Source: Bolinopsis microptera (Eukaryota > Ctenophora > Tentaculata > Lobata > Bolinopsidae). From it: a stretch of 64,000 nucleotides of DNA. The stretch spans positions 25,571,799 through 25,635,798 of the forward strand of contig NC_087072.1 of assembly GCF_026151205.1 (NCBI RefSeq). Direction: 5' to 3'. The notes beneath the pieces were generated by a model, which did no database searches, was not told the origin of the DNA, and saw nothing but the letters and a program-made list of their open reading frames with translations. Shown here in pieces: positions 16,465-61,400 of this stretch (position 1 is the stretch's first letter; every line of letters starts with the position of its first letter). A program made the position numbers and the translations under genes.

Positions 16465-19400
16465 TTAACGTTTCATCTTTGCGATAGAATCATCTACTTC
16501 CTTGTACTTGGTAAAGTTGTTGACGACTCCGTTTTTCGTGATCGATTTATCGTGTCCTGGGACGGTGAAGTGAATCTGTCTGGATCGGATACCATTCCGC
16601 CTCGTCCGCATCGCTATGTACGATATAATGACCAGTGCTGCTGCACTTGCCACGGCCTGAATTTGAAAGAGGTGTTAGGTCTTCGGAAAATATGTGTTTT
16701 CTGTGTAGTGTAAGTGCACATTAATTATACACATTCTAGGAACAAAATCTTTCACAAAATTGTTATTGCAGTTTACTGCAATAACCATAAACAATGGTGC
16801 CTATCTGATTGTACACTTTCCACAATTTACTTTTCCATGTGGCTGTTACTTATTCCCATTAAATCCCAATTGGTTTATTTCTTGTTGGTTCTAGAACTGT
16901 CAAATGGTAATTCATCTTCAAAACTTACAAAGAACCAGTTATCAGTTACCAGTTACCAGTTACCAGTAACCAGCAACCAGTAACCAGTAACCAGTTACCA
17001 GTAACCAGTAACCAGTAACCAGTAACCAGTTACCGGTAACCAGTTACCAGTTACCGGTTACCAGAGTATCACTCATTACATCAGAATCGTATGAGGTGTT
17101 GTTTAATCGCATTGATAATTTGTTACTGTAACAACTGAGATGATCCGATACATCGAACATTAACACTTAATGATTGTTCAGCCGATGCTTTCTTCGGTTA
17201 ATGTAGGCGTAATCTTGTAAGTAAAAGTCTTTCAATTGAATATTGTGTATTAAATATAGTCTTACTAAACGTTGTAGGCAGTCGTTTTAATTAATTTAGA
17301 GTATTAAATCTAACTGTTGAATCTTGGCACAGGTAACATAGAGCTAATTAAATCTACCTCAAAGGACCTTGTGTCGACTGTCGACGTAGCAAATTTAGAT
17401 ACTCGGTTTGAACGTGTATACATTAACTTCTTGCTAACGACATCACACTGAATCTCAAGGTGCTACATAAGACACCTGGTGGAAACCAAATTGACTAACT
17501 CCCTTGCTCCGCATTTGACACTCAACTCTATTTCGAAATCCTGCCCGATTTAACACGTAGCAAGATGTTGTTGCTGCTTGCTTTTCTAATCAGTACAGCC
17601 GCGGGGGACTTGGCAGACCTTTCCGCGTACCATAAGTGCACCAAAGTTAATGGGATATCTGGTGCTTGCAATCTTCGTCTGAATTACTTTACACTTGCAG
17701 GTAAGGTGCTGCTCCAGCTTTGCCAAATACTCATTTTAAATTCTATTTAATTAGCGCGGTTACTGTTGAGTACTTCCTCCAGCTCAATATATTCCCCCGA
17801 CCCAGGTACTCACAACTCTGGAGCAGGAGCTAATGGGCTGCTGTACTGGTACAGTGGACTACCAGCTCCTAGCTGCCTGGTGCGGAACCAGGACAAGTCA
17901 ATCACAGAGCAGCTGGAACTAGGGATCAGATACTTCGACCTGGATCTGGCTCACATCTCAGAGGACAGTGGAGATTGGTGGGAGAAGGGTCTGGTGCTAG
18001 CTCATTGTAACGAGAATATCGGCTGTGCTTACTCCCACTCTCTTAAGAGGGCTCTGTTGGAGATTGAGGAGTTCATGGGACAAAACAGGGACGAGATAGT
18101 TCTCATACGGTTTAAAGATCACGCGGAAACTTCTAGAGAATACATCAAGAAACATATGGCTAATGAGATATTATCCATATTCCGAACATCTTCTAAAGTC
18201 AGGATCAACCCTGACTCTAATCCACGTCTGGGGGACGCCATAACCAGTAATAAGAGGCTACTTATACACACTAACGGTGGTTTCTGGATGGGCAAACCCT
18301 TTAATAGTTTGAGTCAAGTAGAATCATTCAGAGGAGGAGGGGCCACATCTGCCTGTTTCTCTAAGAAAGAAATCATGGATGTTTTTAAGAGTGATTGGTA
18401 TCGAGTAACAGACGACTACTTCCCAGTTCAGGTGATTTGGATAACTCAGCAACTGTAAAATTACGAAATTTTTAGATTTTTTAGAAATTCTAATGATGAC
18501 TGGTTTGTGATCCATAACAACATCCATTAAAATATTTCAGGTGGACTGGTATTTCACTTTTGGATTGTGCCTGTGGGACTTGGCCGGACTATGTGACGGA
18601 ACAGAGTTACACACCATTGTACAGATCAACAGGGAGCTAGTGCATGAAGCACATCGACCTGTCAACTTAGTTCTTATAGACTACGCAGGTCGAGGAGTCA
18701 CCAGACTGTCAGAATTTGTCAGGGAAATCAACGAAGAAAATGTCAAGATATTCACTTAATCTATTTTCCAAGTTACAGATAAACTGAGTTTTACTTTGTA
18801 AAGAGTAAGGGTTGAGCAGGAAAAGTAATTTAAAGTTGGTTCCAGTTTTAGGCTTTAAGTGTAAAAGAGGTATGCCTTAAAAGTGCATGATTTGCCCTTT
18901 AACAGTCACTAGCGATACCAAAATGTAAAAGGAATATTATTTACATTTTAACTCTAAATAAACAAACCTTCATTCCATACATAGACATTTCGTCCATCCA
19001 AGGATGAGCGGTCCAGGCCAGATACTGGATAATATCCTTTGCGATTTGAGACTGGTACGGGATAGTGCCTGGAAATAAAGTGAGTCAGAGGATCGTAAAA
19101 GCTATTCTGATGTATAAACTCCATATTTGATAATTCACGTTTCTTTTTTCCAGTACGAGGCAGCAACGAGTTTGATGAGTAATTAAATTCCACAGTCAAA
19201 ACAAAGCTACATATAAGAAATCCTTCTTACCATCCTCATAGTCGACAGATTCGTTGTAAAGCTGCTGCGCCATGCCGATATAGTATCCGTGGAAGTAAGG
19301 GTTATAAGCCTGTCCCTCTGCTGGCTCAGCCTGACCAGGAGGCACATCTTCGTATCCGGTCAACAGACTAAACAAGTAATCCTCGTTTCCTTCCCGAGCA

Positions 19401-22400
19401 ACATTAATCAAGGTCAGGTCAGGTGGATGGGCGCCATTGTTAGCGAGACGGGCCTTAATCTCGTTATCGTAGGGTGCCGGCATGAAGTCCTGGATGTCAC
19501 CTTGTCGTTCAATTGCGTTACCTTCATCGTCCACATCCGGATACATGTACTGAGAATTTAATTTACTTAAAATAAAAAACAACGTAGTCTCAATGTTAGG
19601 AGGATATTGTAAGTTGTAAAATTTTTCACCGAAAATGAAAGCGTACCCGAATAAAAAGTCAGCACTATTAAGTGTTGTGCTTTGGAACAATTTACACTTT
19701 ACAGTTTATCATATTATTTAATAATAAATACGTAATACGTAACAAAAGTACCTCAGCTGCCATCTCTTTAACTTCCTCCTTCGTGTGAGTCACATCAATG
19801 TGCATTCTCCAGTAGAAGTATTGCATACTGTGACATGCCTGACAAACCTCCTTGTAAACTTGGAAACCACGCCGTAATCTGTTGGATTTTATCATTAAAA
19901 TGCAATACTGAGATTATATGCATCTTAAAGATTAAAATTATAACTGGTTTGGAAAATCTTAAATTCTCAGAATAAATCTACGGAAATTCAGAAAAAGAGT
20001 ACGAACTCACGCTTTGTGGTCATACGACTTGTTCCACTCCTTGTGCTCCCAGTGCATGTGCCCGTGAGCAAGCTCCAACTCATCAGCACTAATCTGACCG
20101 TCGTTCAGAGCAACTCCAACACTGCACACAGCAGCTCCCAGCAACCCAACAAATCCATAACTCTGAAATGTTAGAATGTTATCAGAGCAACTCCAACACT
20201 GCACACAGCAGCTCCCAGCAACCCAACAAATCCATAACTCTGAAATGTTGAATGTTATCAGCAACTCCAACACTGCACACAGCAGCTCCCAGCAACCCAA
20301 CAAATCCATAACTCTGAAATGTTAGAATGTTATCAGAGCAACTCCAACACTGCACACAGCAGCTCCCAGCAACCCAACAAATCCATAACTCTGAAATGTT
20401 GGAACGTTATCAGAGCAACTCCAACACTGCACACAGCAGCTCCCAGCAACCCAACAAATCCATAACTCTGAAATGTTAGAATGTTATCAGAGCAACTCCA
20501 ACACTGCACACAGCAGCTCCCAGCAACCCAACAAATCCATAACTCTGAAATGTTAGAATGTTATCAGTGCAACTCCAACACTGCACACAGCAGCTCCCAG
20601 CAACCCAACAAATCCATAACTCTGAAATGTAGAATGTTATCAGTGCAACTCCAACACTGCACACAGCAGCTCCCAGCAACCCAACAAATCCATAACTCTG
20701 AAATGTTAGAATGTTATCAGAGCAACTCCAACACTGCACACAGCAGCTCCCAGCAACCCAACAAATCCATAACTCTGAAATGTTGGAACGTTATCAGAGC
20801 AACTCCAACACTGCACACAGCAGCTCCCAGCAACCCAACAAATCCATAACTCTGAAATGTTAGAATGTTATCAGAGCAACTCCAACACTGCACACAGCAG
20901 CTCCCAGCAACCCAACAAATCCATAACTCTGAAATGTTAGAATGTTATCAGAGCAACTCCAACACTGCACACAGCAGCTCCCAGCAACCCTACAAATCCA
21001 TAACTCTGAAATGTTAGAATGTTATCAGTGCAACTCCAACACTGCACACAGCTGCTCCCAGCAACCCAACAAATCCATAACTCTGAAATGTTAGAATGTT
21101 ATCAGTGCAACTCCAACACTGCACACAGCTGCTCCCAGCAACCCAACAAATCCATAACTCTGAAATGTTAGAATGTTATCAGTGCAACTCCAACACTGCA
21201 CACAGCAGCTCCCAGCAACCCAACAAATCCATAACTCTGAAATGTTGGAATGTTATCAGAGCAACTCCAACACTGCACACAGCAGCTCCCAGCAACCCAA
21301 CAAATCCATAACTCTGAAATGTTAGAATGTTATCAGAGCAACTCCAACACTGCACACAGCAGCTCCCAGCAACCCAACAAATCCATAACTCTGAAATGTT
21401 AGAATGTTATCAGAGCAACTCCAACACTGCACACAGCAGCTCCCAGCAACCCAACAAATCCATAACTCTGAAATGTTGGAACGTTAGCAACTCCAACACT
21501 GCACACAGCAGCCCCCAGCAACCCAACAAATCCATAACTCTGAAATGTTAGAATGTTATCAGAGCAACTCCAACACTGCACACAGCTGCTCCCAGCAACC
21601 CAACAAATCCATAACTCTGAAATGTTAGAATGTTATCAGTGCAACTCCAACACTGCACACAGCAGCTCCCAGCAACCCAACAAATCCATAACTCTGAAAT
21701 GTTGGAATGTTATCAGAGCAACTCCAACACTGCACACAGCAGCTCCCAGCAACCCAACAAATCCATAACTCTGAAATGTTAGAATGTTATCAGTGCAACT
21801 CCAACACTGCACACAGCAGCTCCCAGCAACCCAACAAATCCATAACTCTGAAATGTTAGAATGTTATCAGTGCAACTCCAACACTGCACACAGCAGCTCC
21901 CAGCAACCCAACAAATCCATAACTCTGAAATGTTGGAATGTTATCAGAGCAACTCCAACACTGCACACAGCAGCTCCCAGCAACCCAACAAATCCATAAC
22001 TCTGAAATGTTAGAATGTTATCAGAGCAACTCCAACACTGCACACAGCAGCTCCCAGCAACCCAACAAATCCATAACTCTGAAATGTTAGAATGTTATCA
22101 GAGCAACTCCAACACTGCACACAGCAGCTCCCAGCAACCCAACAAATCCATAACTCTGAAATGTTAGAATGTTATCAGTGCAACTCCAACACTGCACACA
22201 GCAGCTCCCAGCAACCCAACAAATCCATAACTCTGAAATGTTAGAATGTTATCAGAGCAACTCCAACACTGCACACAGCAGCTCCCAGCAACCCAACAAA
22301 TCCATAACTCTGAAATGTTAGAATGTTATCAGAGCAACTCCAACACTGCACACAGCAGCTCCCAGCAACCCAACAAATCCATAACTCTGAAATGTTAGAA

Positions 22401-25400
22401 TGTTATCAGAGCAACTCCAACACTGCACACAGCAGCTCCCAGCAACCCAACAAATCCATAACTCTGAAATGTTGGAACGTTAGCAACTCCAACACTGCAC
22501 ACAGCAGCTCCCAGCAACCCAACAAATCCATAACTCTGAAATGTTAGAATGTTATCAGAGCAACTCCAACACTGCACACAGCAGCTCCCAGCAACCCAAC
22601 AAATCCATAACTCTGAAATGTTAGAATGTTATCAGAGCAACTCCAACACTGCACACAGCAGCTCCCAGCAACCCAACAAATCCATAACTCTGAAATGTTG
22701 GAACGTTATCAGAGCAACTCCAACACTGCACACAGCAGCTCCCCAGCAACCCAACAAATCCATAACTCTGAAATGTTAGAATGTTATCAGAGCAACTCCA
22801 ACACTGCACACAGCAGCCCCCAGCAACCCAACAAATCCATAACTCTGAAATGTTGGAACGTTATCAGAGCAACTCCAACACTGCACACAGCAGCTCCCAG
22901 CAACCCAACAAATCCATAACTCTGAAATGTTGGAACGTTATCAGAGCAACTCCAACACTGCACACAGCAGCTCCCAGCAACCCAACAAATCCATAACTCT
23001 GAAATGTTAGAATGTTATCAGAGCAACTCCAACACTGCACACAGCAGCCCCCAGCAACCCAACAAATCCATAACTCTGAAATGTTAGAATGTTATCAGTG
23101 CAACTCCAACACTGCACACAGCAGCTCCCAGCAACCCTACAAATCCATAACTCTGAAATGTTGGAACGTTATCAGAGCAACTCCAACACTGCACACAGCA
23201 GCTCCCAGCAACCCAACAAATCCATAACTCTGAAATGTTAGAATGTTATCAGAGCAACTCCAACACTGCACACAGCAGCCCCCAGCAACCCAACAAATCC
23301 ATAACTCTGAAATGTTAGAATGTTATCAACTCCAACACTGCACACAGCAGCTCCCAGCAACCCAACAAATCCATAACTCTGAAATGTCGGAACGTTATCA
23401 GAGCAACTCCAACACTGCACACAGCAGCCCCCAGCAACCCAACAAATCCATAACTCTGAAATGTTAGAATGTTATCAGTGCAACTCCAACACTGCACACA
23501 GCAGCTCCCAGCAACCCAACAAATCCATAACTCTGAAATGTTGCAATGTTATCAACTCCAACACTGCACACAGCAGCCCCCAGCAACCCAACAAATCCAT
23601 AACTCTGAAATGTTGGAACGTTAGCAGTGGCGCAACTCCAACACTGCACACAGCAGCTCCCAGCAACCCAACAAATCCATAACTCTGAAATGTTAGAGAT
23701 GTTTATCAGTGGCGCGAAGAGCAACTCCAACACTGCACACATGCAGCTCCCAGCAACCCAACAATCCATAACTCTGAAATGTTGCAATGTTATCAACTCC
23801 AACACTGCACACAGCAGCCCCCAGCAACCCAACAAATCCATAACTCTGAAATGTTGGGAATGTTATCAGAGCAACTCCAACACTGCACACAGCAGCTCCC
23901 AGCAACCCAACAAATCCATAACTCTGAAATGTTAGAATGTTATCAGAGCAAACTCCAACACTGCACACAGCAGCTCCCAGCAACCCAACAAATCCATAAC
24001 TCTGAAATGTTAGAATGTTATCAGAGCAACTCCAACACTGCACACAGCAGCTCCCAGCAACCCAACAAATCCATAACTCTGAAATGTTAGAATTTTTTGC
24101 GGCAACCCAAAACACTGCCACAGCAGCCCCAAAACCCCCAACAAATCCAAAACTTAAAATTTTGGGAAACTTTTAGAAATCCAACACTGCACACAGAGCC
24201 CCCAGAAAACCAACAAATCCATAACCTAAAAAGTAGAATTTTTTCAGGCAACCCAACCGGGCACACAGCAGCCCCGCAACCCAACAAATCCATAATTTAA
24301 AATGTTAGAATGTTATAGGCAACTCCAACACGGGAAACACAGCGCCCCCACCCCCCAAAAAATCCAAACCTGAAATGTTAAAATTTTGGATCAGAGCAAT
24401 CCACTGCACACGCGCTCCAGCAACCCAAACAAATCCTAACCGAATGGGGGAACGTATCAAGCAACCCCAACACCCCAAACCAGCCCCAGCAACCCCCAAA
24501 CCCCTAACCGAAATGTTGAATGTTATCAGAGCAACCCCAAAACCTGCACACGCACCCGAACCCAACAAACCCAAAACCCTGAATGTTGGAAACGTTATCA
24601 GAGCAACTCCAACACTGCACACAGCAGCTCCCAGCAACCCAACAAATCCATAACTCTGAAATGTTAGAATGTTATCAGAGCAACTCCAACACTGCACACA
24701 GCAGCTCCCAGCAACCCAACAAATCCATAACTCTGAAATGTTGGGAACGTTATCAGAGCAACTCCAACACTGCACACAGCAGCTCCCAGCAACCCAACAA
24801 ATCCATAACTCTGAAATGTTAGAATGGTATCAGAGCAACTCCAACACTGCACACAGCAGCTCCCAGCAACCCAACAAATCCATAACTCTGAAATGTGGAA
24901 CGTTATCAGAGCAACTCCAACACTGCACACAGCTGCTCCCAGCAACCCTACAAATCCATAACTCTGAAATGTTAGAACGTTATCAGTGGCGCGAACTCCA
25001 ACACTGCACACAGCAGCTCCCAGCAACCCAACAAATCCTAACTCTGAAATGTTAGAATGTTATCAGTGCAACTCCAACACTGCAACAGCAGCTCCAGCAA
25101 ACCTACAAATCCATAACTCTGAAATGTGGGAATGTTATCAGTGCAACCCCAACACTGCACACAGCAGCTCCCAGCAACCCAACAAATCCATAACTCTGAA
25201 ATGTTAGAATGTTATCAGAGCACACTCAACACTGCACACTAAGCAGCTCCCAGCAATCCCAACAAATCCATAACTCTGAAATGTTAGAATGTTATCAGGG
25301 CAACTCCAACACTGCACACAGCAGCTCCCAGCAACCCTACAAATCCATAACTCTGAAATGTTAGAATGTTATCAAGTGCAACTCCAAACACTGCACACAG

Positions 25401-26821
25401 CAGCTCCAGCAACCCTACAAATCCTAACTCTGAAATGTTGGAACGTTATCAGAGCAACTCCAACACTGCACACAGACTCTCCCAGCAACCCAACAAATCC
25501 ATACTCTGAAATGTTGGAATGTTATCAGTTCAGAGCAACTCCAACACTGCACACAGCAGCTCCCAGCAACCCAACAAATCCAGAACTCTGAAATGTTAGA
25601 ATGGTTTCAGTGCAACTCCATCCACTGCACACAGCTGCTCCCAGCAACCCAACAAATCCATAACTCTGAAATGTTGCAATGTTATCTACTGCCAACACTG
25701 CACACTGCTGCTTCCAGCAACCCACAAATCCATAACTTCTGAATGTAGATGGTTATCAGTGGCAACTCCAACACTGCACACAGCAGCTCCCAGCAACCTA
25801 GCAAATCCATAACTCTGAAATGTTGGAACGTTATCAGTGGGCGCGAAGAGGACGGTCAATCAGATAGCGGCAGCACGTTAGTTTGAAGTAGGATGAATGT
25901 ATAAACCAACAAGTTTTTGGGACTGGGAGATGAGGAAAGCAACAGCTGGAATGTCGACAAATTTGTTCCGGATGTGAGATAGCTGGAACTTTACCATGAA
26001 GGAGCTACTCATATTATTAGTCTGTTTTTAATCCTTTTTTAAAAACAACAGCGGACATATTTCCTATGAAGGGGTAAAGATAAACTAGGAACTCAGAAGT
26101 CGTATTGATTTTTATGAAGAAGGCACCTGTCATGTCACGTAACCATGATCGAGTAGAGTCTCATTACCGCGCGTCAAATACGCGCGTAACGTGATGCTAA
26201 AATTTCACTCTCGCTACAACTTACAAACTGTGCGTTTTCCATGACGTAGAGTGAAAATTTCCGACCTTCTAGACATAGGTCTATTTTTCGGAGAGAAAAC
26301 TCGTTAAAAATTTAAGAAATTCATAGACTCGTGGAATATAAATAACATAGATTGAAAAAACTTGTCGCAAAACATATCTAGTAAATCGAAATGCTGAATG
26401 CTTCATGTTTGATTAAATTTTCCGTCGACAGGAACGAATAATTTTCAGAGTTTTGGATAACCGTTAGCTACGATGACTTAAATACCATGCTAAACTCACA
26501 TAGTTGAATTTGGGACCAGAACCACCTGATTGGCCGCCTTGTCTCCAACCAGAAAAACTAGGAAGGAATGCTCTCTGAAAATAGACCTGGTTAGCAAGTT
26601 AGTGGTATTTACGCTGACTGAAATCTTTTAAAAAGATAAAGCAAAGATTGCTAGAATGATTTGCATGCCAAGTTGACTTAATATCAGAGTACACTGTATA
26701 CACTACAGTATACTCTGCACTGTATACACTGGTATACACAGTATACACGAACCGAGGTTTGTGCAAAATTGCGAGAGGACGTTTGAGCCAACAAGCGGGT
26801 ACACTGAGATATCAGAGTCAT
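16465..26821 (-). CDS. CYC1: Cytochrome c1, haem protein of respiratory complex III, seven exons
   Basis: Exons (minus strand): 26821-26753, 26574-26500, 20162-20011, 19878-19752, 19549-19231, 19068-18968 and 16656-16465; every junction is in phase, giving 344 residues (about 325 in vertebrates). Residues 1-48 form an Arg/Ser-rich mitochondrial presequence, and 49-67 (YGFVGLLGAAVCSVGVAL) the hydrophobic intermembrane-space sorting segment. RRGFQVYKEVCQACHSM holds the CXXCH haem site (residues 111-115). Met234 in IGMAQQLY is the expected sixth haem ligand. Residues about 282-297 are the C-terminal membrane anchor, followed by a basic tail. The protein carries electrons from the Rieske protein to cytochrome c. 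Intron 2 (20163-26499) is almost filled by a tandem array of its own acceptor plus exon 3 start. Intron 6 (16657-18967) contains a whole gene on the other strand. Least certain is the exon 1 donor (TCG|GTTCGT). Confidence 0.93.
16657..17564. other. Cytochrome c1 intron 6, 3' portion
   Basis: Intronic on the minus strand and upstream of the nested PLC-like gene on the plus strand, so it should hold that gene's promoter. Apart from a 7-bp microsatellite (16935-17068) I see no defined element. Confidence 0.6.
16935..17068. repeat. AGTTACC / AGTAACC 7-bp microsatellite
   Basis: About nineteen units alternate between CAGTTAC and CAGTAAC forms. Because GGTTACC and GGTAACC are self-complementary, the tract can form many small hairpins. 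It lies in the last intron of cytochrome c1, about 500 bp upstream of the nested gene's start. Confidence 0.85.
17565..18759 (+). CDS. Secreted PI-PLC X-domain protein, three exons, nested in CYC1 intron
   Basis: Exons 17565-17700, 17806-18431 and 18541-18759 join in phase to 326 residues. Residues 1-15 (MLLLLAFLISTAAG) form a signal peptide. The X-domain follows: GTHNSGAG (His48, first catalytic His), then NQDKSITEQLELGIRYFDLD and LVLAHC (His112, second catalytic His), as in the PLCXD and bacterial-type PI-PLC family; no EF-hand, Y or C2 domain is present. Members cleave or bind inositol phospholipids or related phosphodiesters; the substrate here is unknown. Cysteines and a signal peptide suggest an extracellular or lumenal protein. 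The entire gene lies within intron 6 of the cytochrome c1 gene, on the opposite strand. An AATAAA at 18957-18962 directly abuts the CYC1 exon 6 donor. Confidence 0.88.
20106..25848 (-). repeat. 77-bp array of CYC1 exon 3 start plus its 3' splice site, about 75 copies
   Basis: Read on the minus strand, each unit is 20 nt of intron ending CTAACATTTCAG followed by the first 57 nt of cytochrome c1 exon 3 (coding from SYGFVG to VGVAL). The copy nearest 20106-20162 is the genuine exon start and continues into the rest of exon 3; all others lie upstream within intron 2. Unit variants include TTCTAAC versus TTCCAAC branch regions, 71-74-bp short units, AGCAGCCCCC versus AGCAGCTCCC, and a GTGGCGCGAAG insertion restricted to the distal (high-coordinate) end. 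No unit except the last has a donor. Entering at any upstream acceptor meets a stop within one to two units. Confidence 0.95.
24088..24590. other. Degenerate or low-accuracy block inside the 77-bp array
   Basis: Six to seven units carry many substitutions and small deletions, enriched for C and A runs (CCCCAAAACCCCCAAC-like), while units on both sides are near-identical to the consensus. An abrupt island of decay is unlike normal array evolution and looks like weak assembly support. Confidence 0.6.
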
Positions 26822-27114: not shown

Positions 27115-28678
27115 TCAATCTGAATCACTATCTGAATCATCAACTTTGAAAGGATCAAACTCGGTAAAAGATTTTCTGTACTGCTTAACTAATGTTCCTC
27201 TTGCTCTTAGATATTTTACATTCCTTCCAGCTAACTCTCCCTGGGCATATTGAGCAGTTCCTCAGATGCCAACACTTCCTGCCGAACTGAAGAGGAACCG
27301 GACTTTCTGAGAACACAAAAACACAGGTTTATCCGGTTTTCAAACTCAGCAATGAAGTAATCACTTCCAGGAGGTACCATTCCTTCCAATCCTCACCAAC
27401 CGGTATTTCCTGTACCTCTAGGTTATACTTATCAGCAAAGGTATAGAACACGTCCTTAATGTCGTTGACCGAGTACCGGGATACAGGTACAGCCTGTATC
27501 TGCATGTGTGACGTGGACAGACTGCGCTCAAAGAACACTGTCGGTTGATTTCTTGTTTGGTTCTGTTCAGGGTTCTTAAAGCTCGTTTGAACTTTTTCTA
27601 CGTCTTCTTGCTGGTTTGGTTCCAAGAATTGCGAACTTTAATGTGGTGGTCGGGACAATCATTACGGGGTCGTTGCTTAATGCGCCTTTTGCAAGCGCTA
27701 AATACATGCGAAGCACCAACAGATAGGACTAAATGTTGCTCAACATTTGGTGATTTCAAAACAGAACAGCAACATCTCTTTCTTCTTCTCCGTGCTGTCA
27801 GCACCACCGGGTGCAGCAGGTCATCTTGCGCTTGTCACCCCGTGCTGTAAAAGTGCTGCGGCTTCAAATCTCTACTTTGTTTTGCTCTTTTCAACCTCAA
27901 TGTAAGGGTTTTCTGTGGTTTCTGCAGGTTGTTTTCTCAGTTCCGCATCAGTAAGGTGTTTCATGGGAACGTAATTTAAAGCATACAACCACTACTCTTA
28001 GTTTTTATTTCCTGCACAGTCTAAGGAAAGGAAACGAGTACAATACGTTGCTTTCTCGTGCAGGATCTTGTGGTTGCGGTAGGGGAGTCGCTCATAGTAC
28101 GGGCCTGATACGAAGTGATACCGAGGTTTTATGGTGTTGACAAGATGTGACAACTCAGGAATACCCTCGGGTACTTTAAAATCTGGTTTTTTAACGTACC
28201 TCAGGACATCAGAGGGCCACTGACTAGTGATGAGAATATCAATACCATTCATAACACCTGACTGAGCCTGTAGAATGTTCAGATCTGTTTCAGTGTAACA
28301 GTGAGGCTCATTTGACATGCCATCTCCGAACACACCACTGATATAAGCTATAGATAATCCGTTAGGTGGTTGTGTACACACCTCTCCGTCCTAAATAAGT
28401 CACATTTTCTGTAACCTCCCCGTCTACCAATATGCGAGAAATAAGCGGTATGTGACTCTTTTGTAGCACCTAAAATATAAGTGGGAACATCCAGCTTGTA
28501 AGTGCCATCTCTGAGACTGAGCCAGGACTCAGCGTTATCTCCGATCACATGACCAGGGATGAGGAGAAGGTGAAATGGGCCCACTTTTTGAGTTGACAGT
28601 GTTTACACGTGAACAGAGCTGTTTGAAGTTTCCTTGCACACTTCCAGCCACCAGGATCTTCAGAGTTTCCTTTGACAT
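27115..28678 (-). pseudogene. CWF19L1: Intronless, frame-broken CWF19-like 1 copy (probable retrocopy)
   Basis: Translated piecewise on the minus strand, this matches CWF19L1/Drn1 (lariat-debranching-associated, metallophosphatase-like N-terminus plus CWF19 C-terminal domains) from start to end: MSKETLKILVAGSVQGNF, FHLLLIPGHVIG, ENVTYLGRRG, IDILITSQWPSDV, KPRYHF then YYERLPYRNH, YALNYVPMKHL, SPNVEQHLV, YLALAKGALSND, HMQIQAVPVS, PPGSDYFIAEFENR, QEVLASEELLN and a terminal EFDPFK with DSDSDSD. There is no intron, unlike the other genes here. The frame breaks near 28580, 28419, 27706, 27380 and 27160-27245, and has stops near 28000, 27993 and 27873. This is best explained as a decayed processed copy. 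Unpolished sequence is the alternative, though no poly-A tract is evident to prove retroposition. Confidence 0.78.
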
Positions 28679-29467
28679 TCCTTTAAGATAATTGGGTCAA
28701 GGGAATGTGCGTTTGTAGTTGTTGGTGTATGATACAAAGCAAACATCGATGGAAACATTTATATTCCAGTCTAGGAAACATGTAACCATACTTGAGTCTT
28801 GGACTCAAGATGTTGTGAAATAATTTGTAATATAAATTCTGTTATCTTCATATTTCATTCTAATATTGTAGAACAGCATGAAGAGTAAATAAATTTATCT
28901 AACGGAACTGATGAATATATTATTGGTTTCATGTAAAGTAAACGTGATAATAAAATCAGAACATAAATATTTACAAAATACACAATATTGAACAAATTGT
29001 ACAATTGTTATCGAGTTCAACATTTGGTAAAATTACATTTCTCATTTTATCAAAAAGTGCCCATTTAAAATACACCTTTAAAATCAGTGTTAGGTATTTG
29101 AAATGCTAACATATTGCAAACCTAATACCCAGTATCCTAAAAACGTAGCTTCAATTTCAGATCTAAAAAATTAATTATGCAAGGTCTGATCAGTGTACAA
29201 AAAGGACCTGATATTTTGTAATTCTGTAAGGCTCTGAACGACAAAATAAATGATTAAAGTTCGAACACTGCGATTAACTTTGATTCAGGATCAATATCAA
29301 ACTTTCTCTGGTAATCTTCACAGAGTCTAATCGAAATTTTATCATATAAGGGAAGCATCAATAAAATAATTCATCGAATTTCCAAGCGATCAACTATGAA
29401 GTTATGTTCATATGAAACAAAGAATAATTCTAATTTCTGTAAGTTTCAGCAAGTTGCAGCCCAGTTC

Positions 29468-33980: not shown

Positions 33981-34109
33981 CATAGTATAGTTATAGTACT
34001 AAATGCATACGTTGCGATATGTGGTTGCGATTAACGTTATATATTTGATGCAAGACTCCTTTATCGTCCTGACGATACAGGGGGAACCGCGCACTCGTGC
34101 GCGGCGGGG

Positions 34110-37100
34110 GCTAATATTAAATACTAGTGGACTCTATGCAGGTCTCCCAGCGCCCCTAATTTTACTGATCTGGAGGTCACATTTTATTGAGCCAGTACAG
34201 GCTAATATTAAATACTAGTGGACTCTATGCAGGTCTCCCAGCGCCCCTAATTTTACTGATCTGGAGGTCACATTTTATTGAGCCAGTACAGGCTAATATT
34301 AAATACTAGTGGACTCTATGCAGGTCTCTCAGCGCCCCTAATTTTACTGATCTGGAGGTCACATTTTATTGAGCCAGTACAGGCTAATATTAAATACTAG
34401 TGGACTCTATGCAGGTCTCCCAGTGCCCCTAATTTTACTGATCTGGAGGTCACATTTTATTGAGCCAGTACAGGCTAATATTAAATACTAGTGGACTCTA
34501 TGCAGGTCTCCCAGCGCCCCTAATTTTACTGATCTGGAGGTCACATTTTATTGAGCCAGTACAGGCTAATATTAAATACTAGTGGACTCTATGCAGGTCT
34601 CCCAGCGCCCCTAATTTTACTGATCTGGAGGTCACATTTTATTGAGCCAGTACAGGCTAATATTAAATACTAGTGGACTCTATGCAGGTCTCCCAGCGCC
34701 CCTAATTTTACTGATCTGGAGGTCACATTTTATTGAGCCAGTACAGGCTAATATTAAATACTAGTGGACTCTATGCAGGTCTCCCAGCGCCCCTAATTTT
34801 ACTGATCTGGAGGTCACATTTTATTGAGCCAGTACAGGCTAATATTAAATACTAGTGGACTCTATGCAGGTCTCCCAGTGCCCCTAATTTTGCTGATCTG
34901 GAGGTCACATTTTATTGAGCCTATGCAGTATATGCAATTCTGTTTTAGACATTGAATTTATTTAAAAAAGGTCTCAGCGCCCCTAATTTTACTGATCTGG
35001 AGGTCACATTTTATTGAGCCAGTACAGGCTAATATTAAATACTAGTGGACTCTATGCAGGTCTCCCAGTGCCCCTAATTTTACTGATCTGGAGGTCACAT
35101 TTTATTGAGCCAGTACAGGCTAATATTAAATACTAGTGGACTCTATGCAGGTCTCCCAGCGCCCCTAATTTTACTGATCTGGAGGTCACATTTTATTGAG
35201 CCAGTACAGGCTAATATTAAATACTAGTGGACTCTATGCAGGTCTCCCAGCGCCCCTAATTTTACTGATCTGGAGGTCACATTTTATTGAGCCAGTACAG
35301 GCTAATATTAAATACTAGTGGACTCTATGCAGGTCTCTCAGCGCCCCTAATTTTACTGATCTGGAGGTCACATTTTATTGAGCCAGTACAGGCTAATATT
35401 AAATACTAGTGGACTCTATGCAGGTCTCCCAGTGCCCCTAATTTTACTGATCTGGAGGTCACATTTTATTGAGCCAGTACAGGCTAATATTAAATACTAG
35501 TGGACTCTATGCAGGTCTCCCAGCGCCCCTAATTTTACTGATCTGGAGGTCACATTTTATTGAGCCAGTACAGGCTAATATTAAATACTAGTGGACTCTA
35601 TGCAGGTCTCCCAGCGCCCCTAATTTTACTGATCTGGAGGTCACATTTTATTGAGCCAGTACAGGCTAATATTAAATACTAGTGGACTCTATGCAGGTCT
35701 CCCAGCGCCCCTAATTTTACTGATCTGGAGGTCACATTTTATTGAGCCAGTACAGGCTAATATTAAATACTAGTGGACTCTATGCAGGTCTCCCAGTGCC
35801 CCTAATTTTACTGATCTGGAGGTCACATTTTATTGAGCCAGTACAGGCTAATATTAAATACTAGTGGACTCTATGCAGGTCTCCCAGCGCCCCTAATTTT
35901 ACTGATCTGGAGGTCACATTTTATTGAGCCAGTACAGGCTAATATTAAATACTAGTGGACTCTATGCAGGTCTCCCAGCGCCCCTAATTTTACTGATCTG
36001 GAGGTCACATTTTATTGAGCCAGTACAGGCTAATATTAAATACTAGTGGACTCTATGCAGGTCTCCCAGTGCCCCTAATTTTGCTGATCTGGAGGTCACA
36101 TTTTATTGAGCCTATGCAGTATATGCAATTCTGTTTTAGACATTGAATTTATTTAAAAAAGGTCTCAGCGCCCCTAATTTTACTGATCTGGAGGTCACAT
36201 TTTATTGAGCCAGTACAGGCTAATATTAAATACTAGTGGACTCTATGCAGGTCTCCCAGTGCCCCTAATTTTACTGATCTGGAGGTCACATTTTATTGAG
36301 CCAGTACAGGCTAATATTAAATACTAGTGGACTCTATGCAGGTCTCCCAGCGCCCCTAATTTTACTGATCTGGAGGTCACATTTTATTGAGCCAGTACAG
36401 GCTAATATTAAATACTAGTGGACTCTATGCAGGTCTCCCAGCGCCCCTAATTTTACTGATCTGGAGGTCACATTTTATTGAGCCAGTACAGGCTAATATT
36501 AAATACTAGTGGACTCTATGCAGGTCTCTCAGCGCCCCTAATTTTACTGATCTGGAGGTCACATTTTATTGAGCCAGTACAGGCTAATATTAAATACTAG
36601 TGGACTCTATGCAGGTCTCCCAGTGCCCCTAATTTTACTGATCTGGAGGTCACATTTTATTGAGCCAGTACAGGCTAATATTAAATACTAGTGGACTCTA
36701 TGCAGGTCTCCCAGCGCCCCTAATTTTACTGATCTGGAGGTCACATTTTATTGAGCCAGTACAGGCTAATATTAAATACTAGTGGACTCTATGCAGGTCT
36801 CCCAGCGCCCCTAATTTTACTGATCTGGAGGTCACATTTTATTGAGCCAGTACAGGCTAATATTAAATACTAGTGGACTCTATGCAGGTCTCCCAGCGCC
36901 CCTAATTTTACTGATCTGGAGGTCACATTTTATTGAGCCAGTACAGGCTAATATTAAATACTAGTGGACTCTATGCAGGTCTCCCAGTGCCCCTAATTTT
37001 ACTGATCTGGAGGTCACATTTTATTGAGCCAGTACAGGCTAATATTAAATACTAGTGGACTCTATGCAGGTCTCCCAGCGCCCCTAATTTTACTGATCTG

Positions 37101-40100
37101 GAGGTCACATTTTATTGAGCCAGTACAGGCTAATATTAAATACTAGTGGACTCTATGCAGGTCTCCCAGCGCCCCTAATTTTACTGATCTGGAGGTCACA
37201 TTTTATTGAGCCAGTACAGGCTAATATTAAATACTAGTGGACTCTATGCAGGTCTCCCAGTGCCCCTAATTTTGCTGATCTGGAGGTCACATTTTATTGA
37301 GCCTATGCAGTATATGCAATTCTGTTTTAGACATTGAATTTATTTAAAAAGGTCTCAGCGCCCCTAATTTTACTGATCTGGAGGTCACATTTTATTGAGC
37401 CAGTACAGGCTAATATTAAATACTAGTGGACTCTATGCAGGTCTCCCAGTGCCCCTAATTTTACTGATCTGGAGGTCACATTTTATTGAGCCAGTACAGG
37501 CTAATATTAAATACTAGTGGACTCTATGCAGGTCTCCCAGCGCCCCTAATTTTACTGATCTGGAGGTCACATTTTATTGAGCCAGTACAGGCTAATATTA
37601 AATACTAGTGGACTCTATGCAGGTCTCCCAGCGCCCCTAATTTTACTGATCTGGAGGTCACATTTTATTGAGCCAGTACAGGCTAATATTAAATACTAGT
37701 GGACTCTATGCAGGTCTCTCAGCGCCCCTAATTTTACTGATCTGGAGGTCACATTTTATTGAGCCAGTACAGGCTAATATTAAATACTAGTGGACTCTAT
37801 GCAGGTCTCCCAGTGCCCCTAATTTTACTGATCTGGAGGTCACATTTTATTGAGCCAGTACAGGCTAATATTAAATACTAGTGGACTCTATGCAGGTCTC
37901 CCAGCGCCCCTAATTTTACTGATCTGGAGGTCACATTTTATTGAGCCAGTACAGGCTAATATTAAATACTAGTGGACTCTATGCAGGTCTCCCAGCGCCC
38001 CTAATTTTACTGATCTGGAGGTCACATTTTATTGAGCCAGTACAGGCTAATATTAAATACTAGTGGACTCTATGCAGGTCTCCCAGCGCCCCTAATTTTA
38101 CTGATCTGGAGGTCACATTTTATTGAGCCAGTACAGGCTAATATTAAATACTAGTGGACTCTATGCAGGTCTCCCAGTGCCCCTAATTTTACTGATCTGG
38201 AGGTCACATTTTATTGAGCCAGTACAGGCTAATATTAAATACTAGTGGACTCTATGCAGGTCTCCCAGCGCCCCTAATTTTACTGATCTGGAGGTCACAT
38301 TTTATTGAGCCAGTACAGGCTAATATTAAATACTAGTGGACTCTATGCAGGTCTCCCAGCGCCCCTAATTTTACTGATCTGGAGGGTCACATTTTATTGA
38401 GCCAGTACAGGCTAATATTAAATACTAGTGGACTCTATGCAGGTCTCCCAGTGCCCCTAATTTTGCTGATCTGGAGGTCACATTTTATTGAGCCTATGCA
38501 GTATATGCAATTCTGTTTTAGACATTGAATTTATTTAAAAAAGGTCTCAGCGCCCCTAATTTACTGATCTGGAGGTCACATTTTATTGAGCCAGTACAGG
38601 CTAATATTAAATACTAGTGGACTCTATGCAGGTCTCCCAGTGCCCCTAATTTTACTGATCTGGAGGTCACATTTTATTGAGCCAGTACAGGCTAATATTA
38701 AATACTAGTGGACTCTATGCAGGTCTCCCAGCGCCCCTAATTTTACTGATCTGGAGGTCACATTTTATTGAGCCAGTACAGGCTAATATTAAATACTAGT
38801 GGACTCTATGCAGGTCTCCCAGCGCCCCTAATTTTACTGATCTGGAGGTCACATTTTATTGAGCCAGTACAGGCTAATATTAAATACTAGTGGACTCTAT
38901 GCAGGTCTCTCAGCGCCCCTAATTTTACTGATCTGGAGGTCACATTTTATTGAGCCAGTACAGGCTAATATTAAATACTAGTGGACTCTATGCAGGTCTC
39001 CCAGTGCCCCTAATTTTTACTGATCTGGAGGTCACATTTTATTGAGCCAGTACAGGCTAATATTAAATACTAGTGGACTCTATGCAGGTCTCCAGCGCCC
39101 CTAATTTTACTGATCTGGAGGTCACATTTTATTGAGCCAGTACAGGCTAATATTAAATACTAGTGGACTCTATGCAGGTCTCCCAGCGCCCCTAATTTTA
39201 CTGATCTGGAGGTCACATTTTATTGAGCCAGTACAGGCTAATATTAAATACTAGTGGACTCTATGCAGGTCTCCCAGCGCCCCTAATTTTACTGATCTGG
39301 AGGTCACATTTTATTGAGCCAGTACAGGCTAATATTAAATACTAGTGGACTCTATGCAGGTCTCCCAGTGCCCCTAATTTTACTGATCTGGAGGTCACAT
39401 TTTATTGAGCCAGTACAGGCTAATATTAAATACTAGTGGACTCTATGCAGGTCTCCCAGCGCCCTAATTTTACTGATCTGGAGGTCACATTTTATTGAGC
39501 CAGTACAGGCTAATATTAAATACTAGTGGACTCTATGCAGGTCTCCCAGCGCCCCTAATTTTACTGATCTGGAGGTCACATTTTATTGAGCCAGTACAGG
39601 CTAATATTAAATACTAGTGGACTCTATGCAGGTCTCCCAGTGCCCCTAATTTTGCTGATCTGGAGGTCACATTTTATTGAGCCTATGCAGTATATGCAAT
39701 TCTGTTTTAGACATTGAATTTATTTAAAAAAGGTCTCAGCGCCCCTAATTTTACTGATCTGGAGGTCACATTTTATTGAGCCAGTACAGGCTAATATTAA
39801 ATACTAGTGGACTCTATGCAGGTCTCCCAGCGCCCCTAATTTTACTGATCTGGAGGTCACATTTTATTGAGCCAGTACAGGCTAATATTAAATACTAGTG
39901 GACTCTATGCAGGTCTCCCAGTGCCCCTAATTTTACTGATCTGGAGGTCACATTTTATTGAGCCAGTACAGGCTAATATTAAATACTAGTGGACTCTATG
40001 CAGGTCTCCCAGCGCCCCTAATTTTACTGATCTGGAGGTCACATTTTATTGAGCCAGTACAGGCTAATATTAAATACTAGTGGACTCTATGCAGGTCGCC

Positions 40101-40293
40101 CAGCGCCCCTAATTTTACTGATCTGGAGGTCACATTTTATTGAGCCAGTACAGGCTAATATTAATACTATAGTGGACTCTATGCAGGTCTCCCAGTGCCC
40201 TAATTTTGCTGATCTGGAGGTCACATTTTATTGAGCCTATGCAGTATATGCAATTCTGTTTTAGACATTGAATTTATTTAAAAAGGTCTCACC
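34110..40293. repeat. 91-bp satellite with 1.19-kb higher-order repeat, about 68 units
   Basis: The unit begins GCTAATATTAAATACTAGTG and ends TTGAGCCAGTACAG. Every thirteenth unit is a 99-bp variant containing GCCTATGCAGTATATGC and ATTGAATTTATTTAAAAAA (at about 34920, 36111, 37303, 38492 and 39682, then the array's right edge at 40235). Between variants the order of CAGCG, CAGTG and CTCTCAG unit types is the same in each block, so the 12+1 block itself was duplicated. The left edge abuts a GCGCGGCGGGGG motif; the right edge ends in the variant unit. No coding function; reading frames over it are incidental. Confidence 0.95.
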
Positions 40294-44300: not shown

Positions 44301-44445
44301 ATTCTCCGACTCATATCAACTCCTGTTTCATCAGTGTAAATCACATTTTTCTCAGTATTTTTTCCCCACCAGTATTAACTCTCGCTTCACATGTTACTCT
44401 ACATTTTCTCACATTATTTTTCCACTCAGTATTAACTCTCTGACA
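41330..44445. repeat. Degenerate ~60-bp pyrimidine-rich tandem array, interrupted
   Basis: Recurrent motif: CAGTATTAACTCTCTGTCTT, CATCAGTGTTACTCTACATT, TCTCAGTAGTTATTCTCCCA. Unit length is about 56-62 with heavy indels. The block at 42241-43554 does not contain the unit and is richer in G and T. The open frame 43504-44259 is a by-product of stop-poor repeat sequence. Confidence 0.7.
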
Positions 44446-45199
44446 AGTGACAATAGTAACGCACTATTTTCTTCAAAAAAGTAGACCAAGGGTTTTCCCC
44501 TTTTCCTCTCCGAGAACAGAAAATACTCTCTGTCTTGTCAGGTTACTTATATTTAGCTCAGTAGTTACTCCTTACACATTATATTGCAAGGCAAATTTCG
44601 GGGAAACGAGTATTTTTTGTAGTAAAATTTTTAATATAAAGCACAAAATATTTTGTTTTTCTCTTTGGGTTTGATTTTTTAATAAAAAGCCGTAATTTTA
44701 GAAGGTAACGGGGAAACAAAGTGGCAAAGGGCGTTGAGGAGATTCCTGTGAAATCCTCTCACCAGTCTGAGCCCACCAACGAAAATCAGAGGACCAACTG
44801 CACCCCAGAAACTTCAGCAGGCTCACATCCCCTGCAGACATATTTTTCAAGCATCGATGATGGTTTTAATGAAATGGGAGGGCAACCCCGAAATTAAGAA
44901 ACATACCGTTCTTGTAAAAGAAAAGGCTGTTAAATTTTATCGTAGCATGTTTACTTCCAAATTTTAATGCAAAAAATTTTAGGTTATAACTCGTTCATGT
45001 CTATGGCCGTGCGTCCGCGGCGAGTAGGGGGGTTTGGACCTGCTTTAGAGAAAATATGAAGTTTCCACAGTAAATATTATTATCAATATCAAAGGCAGGC
45101 ATTACTTTTGACCCCCGAGGGGAGGGACCGTGTGGACTTGGTTGTTATCAGGGGTTTGGAAAACAAAGATAATTTTGTCGTTTTTAAACGGGTTATCAC

Positions 45200-45476
45200 C
45201 CGTGCGTAACGTTTTCCGTTGGCGCCCCCCCGCCCAAAAAAGCGCCCCCCTGTTGGCCCCCTCCCCTTTTGTGCCCCTCCCAAAATTTAACAAATTGCTG
45301 ATTTTAAAGAAAAAACGCCGGGAAAAAACTCTAAAAAAATGTGATCTAGAGCAAAAACGCGCAGTTTTGTAGTACTTTTTTAAGTTTTCGAAAAGTCCAC
45401 ATTCAAACGACGATTTGGCGCCCCCCCAAGACGGCGCCCCCCTGCACCGGGGGCAGCAGGGCCTTTTGTTACGCCA
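45200..45476. mobile_element. TIR element with GCGCCCCCC blocks, copy A
   Basis: Starts near GTGCGTAACG and ends GTTACGCCA; both ends are versions of CAGTGGCGTAAC in opposite orientation. It contains GGCGCCCCCC blocks, CCCCTGTTGGCCCC and an AT-rich core. A second copy of its left half is at 48025-48185. No coding capacity; superfamily not determined. Confidence 0.55.
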
Positions 45477-46734: not shown

Positions 46735-47260
46735 CCGCGGCGGGTCATACAGCGTATGACAACCCGGCGCGCGCTACTTCGTAGCACTTGCCGTCGAGAA
46801 GAAAGCGGCGCGCGCTACGTTGAAGAAATTTAGACGAGTAATATCCGTCAATGGGTTTGTATGTTTATAACCTACCAGGACGCGCGCAGAGTTGGACTCG
46901 TCGACAAATATCGGAACAAATATTTTACGAGTATCACCCGTTAATCAATGGGTATAATTAATCAAATTTTACATTTTAATGTTTAAATTACTGTCAATTC
47001 TATACTTCAATTAATGTCACTTGTTTTATTTTTATTGACGATGTCAACCCTTCGAGATCGTTGGTCTGCGAAGCAAAGCAACGTTCTGCGTTGTTGGTTG
47101 TAGTGCGATGCACTACTGGGTCGCGCCGCGCATATTCTCGCAACCTTCCGTAGATCGGCGAGATGCACCACTGGGGCTCGCCGAGCTACTAAAAAGGATT
47201 GACATTGTGAATCAACGTTCTGCGAAGCAGAAATTATAGTTCTCGTTGACTGATGTTACT
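46735..47260. repeat. GC-rich dispersed repeat, copy 2
   Basis: Shares CGCGGCGGGTCATAC, GTATGACAAC, GCGATGCACTACTGG and a terminal GATTGACATTGTGAATCAAC with copy 1 at 33415-33980. It includes short dyads such as GCTACTTCGTAGC. Not coding. Confidence 0.6.
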
Positions 47261-58413: not shown

Positions 58414-61400
58414 ATGAGCGTGCTCTACAAGAACAAAGGAGGTCCGGTGATGAACAACCCGATAAAGGATAACTCTCATCTTCTGAAACACGATGAGAAC
58501 AATGACGTCATACACTTTCCTCCCAACAACACCAACACTGGGTTAGTTGTGACATGTTTAATAATTTACACTGGACTGGCTAATATTTTCAACAAAATAA
58601 TGCTGTTATTAGTCAGATTAATACTTTCGGTTTGAGATGAATTGATTTTGTGTTTAGATTTGATGACGCAGGTGTTACTAATATGTTACTGCAGGTGTTA
58701 CTATTGTGTTTAGATTTGATGACGCAGGTGTTACTAATATGTTACTATTCAATATAGTAGGCTTTCTTATTACAGTTCTATTGTAACCTTAAATACAATT
58801 TTTTGTATATAAAGCTAATTTGTAAAGCACAATAGCAGCTCTCTCCTTTGCTAAATTTCAAGGTGCCTCAATAATGCCTACCTACCGAATAAAGCCTGAT
58901 TACTGCAGTAATGAACAAAAAGCACCATCATGAACTCTGTACTGCTTAACCGCACCGATATCGCAATAGCTCCAATTATTATACAGAAAGTGAAGTCGAC
59001 CTATTTAAATTTTAAGTGGAAATGTCTCAACCTTTTACACCTCACTATTTACTAAACCCCATAACTCGGCTCACTTTACTCCCCCCTCTGAGTAGATATT
59101 ATAGTAGATATTATATCCTTCAAACTGATTAACATCTACCAGGTAATCAGGTATTTTACAGAATTCAAATTATCTTACTTAGTGCAGTGCCCTCTATTAT
59201 CCAATCTATCAAATTGTAGCCGTAGTTATAACGTTGCAGTTTTAATACTAAAATAAGAACTCGTACCAATCTGACTGGTATTACCTCTACCTTGTAAGTC
59301 TCCATTTCTCAGTGCTCGACTTTAACCGGGTGTGTTATCAGGGTGACCCCCCCCCCCCCCCCCCCCCCCCCTTAACCGGCCAGTATTTAGTCCTTTACCG
59401 GCATTCTGGTGAGAGGACCTCGACATGGTCTTTAATTCCCATTACCGGCCGCAGCTTGTTCTTCTCGGTATTCAAACCGTTACGTACTGTCCCTTTATAC
59501 GTCCTGGTTTATAGGTTGCTAACTGTGGGGTCGCCACATACAGTTAACTCGTGCAATTGCTGTGCGTCACGACCATAGAGCAGAACTTATAAGTACCATA
59601 TTTGTCTCGATATCATAGTAACCGTGAGGGTAGCACATATCGTTAAGACATTGGTAGGGACTAGGGGGATTAAAGGATCACATTGGTCTGAATTCTGCAG
59701 TTTTAAGTCCCCCTGTATGATAACTACAAACAATAACTCCTGCCTGTTTCAGGAGTACGTGGATGTTAGGTTTTATAGAACAGAACCCAGACTCGATAGG
59801 AGGAGGAGGAAGTAGGAGGATGCTGATCACACCTCAGTCCTACATGCACTCAGTTCGGTCCAGGTGTGGTTACGATACTTATCACAGTGTTCCTGGCAAA
59901 GACAGGTTGGTACTTTTTACTGGTTATTTACTTTGGATCCGTAGTACTGACGTCAGTTATGTTTTCTAGAAGATTCTTTTTGTATATATTGTGATAAATA
60001 ACGGTAAAAGTGTTGAAGATTTTCAAAAACCAAACAACAGTTGCAGTGGATACGATTCTGAGGTTGCGAGCATCATGTCTTCTAAAACTCCGATTTACGA
60101 GAACCTAGTTCCGTCCTCCAAGAACAGGATGCACAACTCCATCCCTCTCCAGCACCCCGTCTCCAGTCTCCAGCACCCTATCTCCAGCATGCAGCACCCT
60201 CTGGTTCACCACCCTATCTCCTCCGTCCAACATCCCATCACAACCATCCCCCACCATATGTCTGGGGTCCAGCACCCCATATCCAACATCCAGCACCCCA
60301 TATCCAGTTTACATCAGCACAGTATCCTCCACCACAATAACCCTATACTGACCAACCCCATGGTTTGGCAGCCACAACAGCTCAATCCTCCATCAGGTAT
60401 TACCTTGAATATAATAATTTCTGTTATCTTGTCGACAGTATTAAAATATGTTCTGTGATCATATATCAAATTTATATGAGTAACACAATGGTCGTAAATT
60501 TAGTGAGGCAATTAAAACTTAACAAATGTTATATATGTAAAATCCGGATTGGAATATTATTTATGAGTCGTATAGTTGAAATGATTTCTTGGGTAAATTT
60601 CTATTGATCCCGTTTGATGCGACAAGGAAAAGGCTCTTTTTATAAACTTTGAATTTTAAAATAACTTATATGAAATGAAAGTGTTTTCAGGACGTAACAG
60701 TGCGGATAGGCAGTACAATAATAACGACAGTTTATCAAGTAGTGGAGTTTACAGCGAGGAAGAGAGAAAACTCAACCTTAAAGCCAGGTATGTAACTTAC
60801 AGCGAGGAAGAGAGAAAACTCAACCTCAAAGCCAGGTATGTAACTTAAAGCTAGGTATGTAACTTAAAGCTAGGTATGTAACTTAAAGCTAGGTATGTAA
60901 CTTCATATAAAGCCAGGTATGTAACTTAAAGCTAGGTATGTAACTTAAAGCTAGGTATGTAACTTAAAGCTAGGTATGTAACTTAAAGCTAGGTATGTAA
61001 CTTAAAGCTAGGTATGTAACTTAAAGCTAGGTATGTAACTTCTCATTTCTCTCCAACAAATCTCATCTTCAAAGTAAGATATCAATATCATTCTCGACCT
61101 ATTCTAGGGTGTGGCAGCTCATAAATGGATAGTAGGAATAAGGAATTTACTGTCATTCTGGGAAATTTCTTGCTTTGCTGGACATGTTTGGTGTTGATTT
61201 GGAGTAAAGTTTACAGTAACATTTTAAACTTCTATATACCCATCTGAACGATGCTAAGTTTAATCATCAAATTTGGCCGAGTTAGCACAGCAATTAGTGG
61301 TTTATAACACATCCAAGATGACGATCCAACTAATCCATGTCGTAACCCATATTTTCAAGATAGCAGGAGCTCATTAGTAGACTAAATATTACCAGAATAT

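What the first reader, a model, noticed from the sequence alone, without database searches (positions are those of the whole stretch)
20106..25848. About 75 tandem decoy 3' splice sites, each with a piece of CYC1 exon 3, inside CYC1 intron 2
The 77-bp repeat is not generic satellite: 20 nt are the 3' end of the intron (branch-like CTAAC and TTTCAG) and 57 nt are the true start of exon 3, coding the membrane-sorting segment of cytochrome c1. An essential respiratory gene therefore has to select one acceptor out of about 75 near-identical ones. All but the last give premature stops because 77 is not a multiple of 3 and no unit has a donor. Exon definition from the single downstream donor would favour the last copy. 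The array could affect CYC1 output or splicing accuracy, or generate intron-retained or circular products. The layout is seen directly; consequences are inference.
Basis: partly seen in the sequence, partly recalled or inferred. Interest (0 to 1): 0.9.

Follow-up and report, generated by a model that had tools for sequence, protein, structure and literature searches.

The report
Tandem 3' splice-site minisatellite in CYC1
One of two copies of a respiratory gene carries dozens of tandem copies of the place where an intron ends and an exon begins, a large example of a repeat type known from lancelets, here in what is probably a comb jelly.

Summary
A 77-bp unit (about 20 nt of intron end, 57 nt of exon 3 start) is repeated about 75 times between CYC1 exon 2 and exon 3, minus strand. 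Of 75 units, 67 keep TTTCAG|AG. Each of the 66 intact decoys leads to a stop; only the last acceptor, at 20162, stays open.

(1) The assembly has a second CYC1 copy 330 kb away, inverted, with 2.4-3.6% mismatches in three blocks, one acceptor and a 666-bp intron 2. The array is thus an expansion, and the animal need not depend on it being spliced well. (2) The upstream part of the array looks poorly polished, so 75 is provisional; units 31-74 look clean. (3) It is a known kind: "mirage" minisatellites across exon-intron boundaries, reported in lancelets (passages). (4) Further arrays here repeat exon ends with 5' splice sites.

Most likely it is a near-neutral, unstable repeat spliced at the last acceptor. 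No RNA was available.

The parts
20105..25837 (-). 77-bp tandem array, about 75 units, each = end of intron 2 (TGATAAC...TTTCAG) + first ~57 nt of exon 3
   Evidence: 67 of 75 units keep TTTCAG|AG
20011..20162 (-). true CYC1 exon 3 (152 nt), the last unit of the array; SYGFVGLLGAAVCSVGVALNDGQISADELELAHGHMHWEHKEWNKSYDHKA
   Evidence: only intact acceptor whose exon stays open to the donor
20163..26499 (-). CYC1 intron 2, 6337 bp here versus 666 bp in the second copy
   Evidence: coordinates
26500..26574 (-). CYC1 exon 2, 75 nt, in phase with exon 3
26753..26821 (-). putative CYC1 exon 1 (ATG at 26821); donor position uncertain, one of several GT sites
18968..19878 (-). CYC1 exons 4-6: 19752-19878, 19231-19549, 18968-19068, each between AG and GT; terminal exon not found
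   Evidence: motif search for the C-terminal exon negative
24090..24600 (-). units 17-23, degraded, with raw-read-like indels
   Evidence: 6.29 one-base indels per unit versus 0.07 in units 31-74
27125..28680 (-). CWF19L1-like gene upstream of CYC1 (limits approximate); frame broken by 1-bp indels in the window copy, probably sequence error
   Evidence: CwfJ_C_1 match of the second copy
60691..61041 (+). second boundary array in another gene: exon 60691-60787 whose end with its 5' splice site (CCAG|GTATGT) is repeated in 48-bp (2.2 copies) and 19-bp (11 copies) units; the counterpart has 14.0 copies of 48 bp, 3.7 of 63 bp and a 24-bp x3.1 array at the 3' splice site

Best explanation
The array is a 'mirage'-type minisatellite. 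A short tandem duplication arose between shared short words in intron 2 (CACTGATAAC) and exon 3 (CYCTGAACG), copying the likely branch site, the 3' splice site and the first ~57 nt of exon 3. Slippage or unequal exchange then expanded it to dozens of units in one of the two CYC1 copies. Because the duplication leaves a complete exon 3 at the downstream end, correct mRNA is still made when the exon 2 donor joins the last acceptor, which bounds the normal 152-nt exon. Use of any intact upstream acceptor gives a stop within 116 codons and a transcript expected to be degraded. The array is therefore most likely a tolerated, roughly neutral passenger that costs some mis-splicing. Shown: anatomy, stops, single-unit counterpart, intact coding sequence of exons 2-6. 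Inferred: order of events, use of the last acceptor, degradation of the rest.
For: The second copy gives the unexpanded site: one acceptor, same flanks. The units carry several exon-intron junctions (TTGCTCTGATA in 35 of 75, TTGCACTGATA in 12, single long forms such as TTGCTCTTCGCGCCACTGATA; 14 units did not fit the pattern) that can be derived from one long junction by small deletions. CYC1 exons 2-6 of the array copy are intact: 258 codons, 11 synonymous and 2 amino-acid changes against the other copy, both in exon 2. Tandem copies of exon ends occur at other genes here. [quoted passage not shown] PMC3902484 passage).
Against: No RNA data. Constraint on the coding sequence may predate the array, so it does not prove that the array copy is spliced correctly now. 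Nothing in the sequence itself was found that makes the last acceptor better than the 66 intact decoys. The last CYC1 exon was not found in either copy. The window copy lies partly in what looks like poorly polished sequence.
Confidence: 0.68

Rival explanations
1. The array copy is effectively a non-productive allele or paralogue. Upstream acceptors win, its transcripts are degraded, and the single-acceptor copy supplies cytochrome c1.
For: A normal second copy exists. The decoys are transcribed first and 66 of them are intact. The neighbouring CWF19L1 frame is broken in this copy.
Against: Coding differences are 11 synonymous to 2 amino-acid changes, so both copies look constrained. The CWF19L1 breaks are single-base indels in a stretch rich in them. 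Lancelet mirages were reported to splice regularly.
Confidence: 0.18
2. The array is a regulatory device: decoy acceptors produce premature-stop transcripts that tune CYC1 output, selected for that role.
For: Acceptors are kept in 67 of 75 units, and all 66 intact decoys end in a stop.
Against: Recent homogenisation would keep units alike without selection: in the 38 clean 77-bp units the exonic part, which has no use there, varies less per column (0.009) than the intronic part (0.022). The array is absent from the other copy. No relative could be compared.
Confidence: 0.05
3. Assembly artefact: the array, or its length, comes from gap closing or mis-joining of noisy long reads.
For: If the genome is the Bolinopsis assembly, it was built with wtdbg, gap-closed with TGS-Gapcloser and polished with Illumina reads (PMC10232365 section 12). 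1-bp indels are frequent at 25.5-31 kb and units 17-23 are degraded.
Against: 44 units (31-74) with 16 distinct, patterned variants and a clean junction into exon 3 are not read noise. Similar arrays occur at other places. The length of 75 may still be wrong.
Confidence: 0.08

Closest known systems
'Mirage' minisatellites of lancelets (Adh3, globins BflGb6 and BflGb9, TnC; PGBD5 duplications likened to them)
   Same: [quoted passage not shown] unit number differs between haplotypes (6 versus 3 in BflGb6); the authentic boundary remains in use (PMC3087553 and PMC3902484 passages).
   Different: About 75 units here against 3-6 in BflGb6; 1 versus ~75 between two copies of the gene; a genome that does not fit a lancelet by size and chromosome number (lancelet values recalled); splicing not tested here.
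Intron gain by tandem duplication of AG/GT proto-splice sites (Rogers model)
   Same: Local tandem duplication that includes splice signals; named as related in PMC3087553.
   Different: The unit has an acceptor but no convincing donor, so it does not by itself create an intron.
Tandem (NAGNAG-like) alternative acceptors (recalled)
   Same: Several acceptors compete for one donor.
   Different: Spacing of 77 nt, dozens of sites, and out-of-frame stops rather than a small protein change.

Membership tests
Mirage minisatellite (exon-intron boundary minisatellite) | Tandem repeat unit spans an exon-intron boundary of a real gene | tested here: met
   CYC1 identity
Mirage minisatellite (exon-intron boundary minisatellite) | Genuine gene boundary remains intact outside the repeats | tested here: met
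   last unit continues into the open 152-nt exon 3
Mirage minisatellite (exon-intron boundary minisatellite) | Unit number varies between alleles or copies | tested here: met
   about 75 versus 1 between the two CYC1 copies; whether they are alleles or paralogues is not settled
Mirage minisatellite (exon-intron boundary minisatellite) | Repeats do not prevent regular splicing | not testable with these tools
   no RNA data; the intact coding sequence bears on it only indirectly
Mirage minisatellite (exon-intron boundary minisatellite) | Length instability, including somatic | not testable with these tools
   needs long reads from several individuals
Intron-gain duplication | Repeat carries both a donor and an acceptor able to make an intron | tested here: not met
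   the eight GT sites of the consensus unit are all poor donors, judged by eye

The most novel reading that the evidence does not exclude
Splice-site minisatellites are a widespread feature of this (probably ctenophore) genome, giving many natural series of near-identical competing splice sites, with CYC1 as the largest acceptor series seen here, so that splice-site choice by position alone could be read from existing RNA data.
Probability: 0.45. Interest if true: 0.65.

Novelty: new member of a known kind. Interest (0 to 1): 0.5.

Why it matters
Dozens of near-identical acceptors in a row, with one correct one at the end, is a natural test of how a splice site is chosen when sequence gives no clue: first transcribed, nearest to the downstream donor, or best-sized exon. 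The other CYC1 copy, with one acceptor, is a built-in control, and 13 differing codons let reads be assigned to each. If mirages are common in an animal group far from lancelets, they are a general source of unstable gene structure and perhaps of new introns, as proposed for lancelet globins.

Tried and rejected
Retained haplotype versus segmental duplication was not settled. In the 200 kb compared, window 1-32579 matches C1:25255069-25282643 inverted, in 13 pieces of 400 bases or more (90-97% identity, gaps counted), and 57170-64000 matches C1:25346750-25359248 directly in 3 pieces. The inverted match continues to 25548584 / 25297875. Judged from the lists alone, other genes are mostly single: no evident twin among the 35 listed CCT (PF00118) matches; one twin pair among 24 proteasome matches, but that is a 2.1-kb, 99.86% identical repeat of another sort. 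Such lists are lower bounds. Read depth would decide.

A genuine age gradient along the array was considered and dropped: the noisy upstream units lie in or next to sequence rich in 1-bp indels.

Enrichment of splice sites in arrays: a donor weight matrix (recalled, human-like) over 44 arrays gave 6 with p<0.05 and none below 0.01 (2.2 expected at 0.05); two of the six are the two copies of one gene: weak. The triple-donor pattern gave 1462 hits, against 42 for its reversed control, 246 for a GT-to-TG swap and 484 for the reversed swap. Hits are not independent: on C1, which is fully listed, they fall into 7 arrays versus 3 for the swap. Frequencies outside arrays of the four words are similar (5, 3, 6, 13 in 231 kb). 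No splice-site-specific mechanism is claimed.

Naming the other genes mostly failed. Of six exons at boundary arrays sent to Pfam, none reached a family's cut-off: the XK-related-like exon had E 0.001 and the 60.7-kb gene's next exon E 0.012 (YibY, not credible), the third exon nothing; L040, L042 and L043 nothing. L041 was not sent. The DPH2-like look of L042 is from memory and found no Pfam or PDB match. DNA searches with L025, L017 and window 45000-57000 returned dispersed repeats.

Full report
What is there. The array is present in the assembly: 20105-25837, period 77, 75.1 copies. Read on the minus strand, each unit is the end of CYC1 intron 2 (TGATAAC, then TTTCAG) joined to the first ~57 nt of exon 3. 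I count 75 units with the true exon 3, after dropping one chance match; 67 of 75 keep TTTCAG|AG. Exon 2 is 26500-26574, exon 3 is 20011-20162, so intron 2 is 6337 bp. Splicing exon 2 to any of the 66 intact decoys leads to a stop; only 20162 reads through to the exon 3 donor. The eight GT sites in the unit are poor donors by eye.

The gene. The model is cytochrome c1 (Pfam 1.1e-70; PDB chains to 3.3e-61). The repeated exon piece, SYGFVGLLGAAVCSVGVAL, fits the hydrophobic part of the presequence (recalled knowledge of cytochrome c1 import). The C-terminal exon was sought with three motifs in part of the DNA held and not found in either copy, so the gene model is incomplete.

The second copy. 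Searching the whole assembly (264.65 Mb, 232 contigs) with the exon 3 region gave 34 matches, 33 in the array region and one elsewhere, C1:25261732-25261914. Pfam PF02167 gives 6 matches, all at these two places; such counts are lower bounds. The second copy has one acceptor and a 666-bp intron 2. Around it, 13 pieces covering much of window 1-32579 match in inverted order, with 3.58, 2.83 and 2.36% mismatches in three blocks. CYC1 exons 2-6 differ by 11 synonymous and 2 amino-acid changes in 258 codons; both amino-acid changes are in exon 2. I lean to two haplotypes kept side by side, but a segmental duplication is not excluded.

Origin. The second copy shows the sequence before expansion: intron ...CTCTTCGCGCCACTGATAACGTTCCAACATTTCAG, exon ...GTTGCCCTGAACGACGG. 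The common unit junctions TTGCTCTGATA (35 of 75 units) and TTGCACTGATA (12) meet at short shared words; 14 units did not fit the pattern used. One unit keeps a long junction, TTGCTCTTCGCGCCACTGATA, from which the others can be derived by small deletions. This order is inference.

Quality. 1-bp indels against the second copy are frequent in most bins of 25.5-31 kb (2 to 14 per 500 bases) and mostly 0-5 elsewhere, with exceptions at 16.5 kb (7) and in the array at 60.5 kb (19). In the CYC1 array, one-base indels per unit are 1.67 in units 1-12, 0.50 in 13-16, 6.29 in 17-23, 0.86 in 24-30 and 0.07 in 31-74; templates came from units 31-74, which favours them. The number 75 and the decay of the upstream units should not be trusted. 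In the 38 units of exactly 77 bp among units 31-74, seven columns vary, and the exonic part varies less than the intronic part, as expected of recent homogenisation rather than selection on the acceptor.

Not alone. At 60.7 kb another gene has its exon end and donor (CCAG|GTATGT) repeated: 2.2 copies of a 48-bp unit and 11 of a 19-bp unit in the window, 14.0 copies of 48 bp and 3.7 of 63 bp in its counterpart, which also has 3.1 copies of a 24-bp unit at the 3' splice site. The 48-bp unit is a multiple of three and open in frame over part of the array. In the 200 kb around the second copy, an XK-related-like exon (Pfam E 0.001, below the cut-off) is followed by 4.9 donor units, and another, unidentified exon by 19. 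Of 7 arrays on C1 with the triple-donor pattern, I judge by eye that 4 follow a coding exon (L040-L043; frames of 58, 39, 64 and 56 codons, coding scores 2.7, 3.8, 5.5, 10.1), 2 do not (L044, L045) and 1 is unclear (L039, 56 codons, score 1.2). Only L043 reaches the score of 10 that I used for listing exons, so this count is soft.

Organism. Each of C1-C13 is chromosome-sized as far as seen (matches beyond 14 Mb in each or a stated length above 15 Mb). Bolinopsis microptera has 13 chromosome-scale scaffolds holding 97.23% of its assembly and a 1n size near 254 Mb (PMC10232365 passages). Of 4 glutamate-receptor loci fetched I tested 2: one had the ML032222a receptor as best PDB match (that this is the ctenophore Mnemiopsis is recalled), the other a kainate receptor. 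A lobate ctenophore is likely; the species is not proved.

How it works, most likely. The spliceosome pairs the exon 2 donor with the acceptor that bounds the 152-nt exon ending at the only downstream donor. Upstream choices give longer exons (229 nt for the nearest) with early stops. The array is then tolerated. This rests on analogy with lancelet mirages, for which regular splicing was reported (PMC3087553 and PMC3902484, passages seen), and on the conserved coding sequence. It is not shown here.

Known or new. Repeats across exon-intron boundaries are known as mirages in lancelets; PMC3087553 says they may be general in cephalochordates and offers them as a source of introns. My searches of the paper library listed no report in ctenophores; 'ctenophore' with 'minisatellite' gave two papers on other subjects by title, not opened. 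The library holds open-licence papers only. This is a new member of a known kind, notable for its size, for one unit against about 75, and for its likely host.

Noticed in passing
window 34109-40237: A 91-bp unit repeated about 67 times (94% matches), in the part of the window without a counterpart in the DNA compared.
   Followed up: no
window 41371-44438: Degenerate arrays of about 58-59 bp (63-78% matches), pyrimidine-rich.
   Followed up: no
L030 5381-6248 (C1:25355380-25356247): Exon end plus 5' splice site repeated in 48-bp and 63-bp units, both multiples of three, so that choosing a later donor could lengthen the protein by whole repeats (YSEEERKLNLKARYVT) over part of the array.
   Followed up: partly
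C1:25217248-25217998 (minus) and C1:25326331-25326620 (plus): Donor arrays at the ends of two further exons (39 bp x19, GTAAGT; 60 bp x4.9, GTAATG).
   Followed up: partly
L033 5192-6795 (C1:25566991-25568594): A 19-bp array of about 1.6 kb where the counterpart has about 0.29 kb, judged from overlapping matches.
   Followed up: no
window 17751-18458 plus strand: A PI-PLC-X-like gene (Pfam 22.6 bits, just under the cut-off of 23.1) lies on the opposite strand just downstream of CYC1 exon 6; the missing last CYC1 exon may lie beyond it.
   Followed up: partly
L031 (C2:14174500-14178500) and L032 (C2:14662500-14666500): A 2.1-kb stretch with an open proteasome-subunit frame is present twice, inverted, 99.86% identical.
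   Followed up: partly
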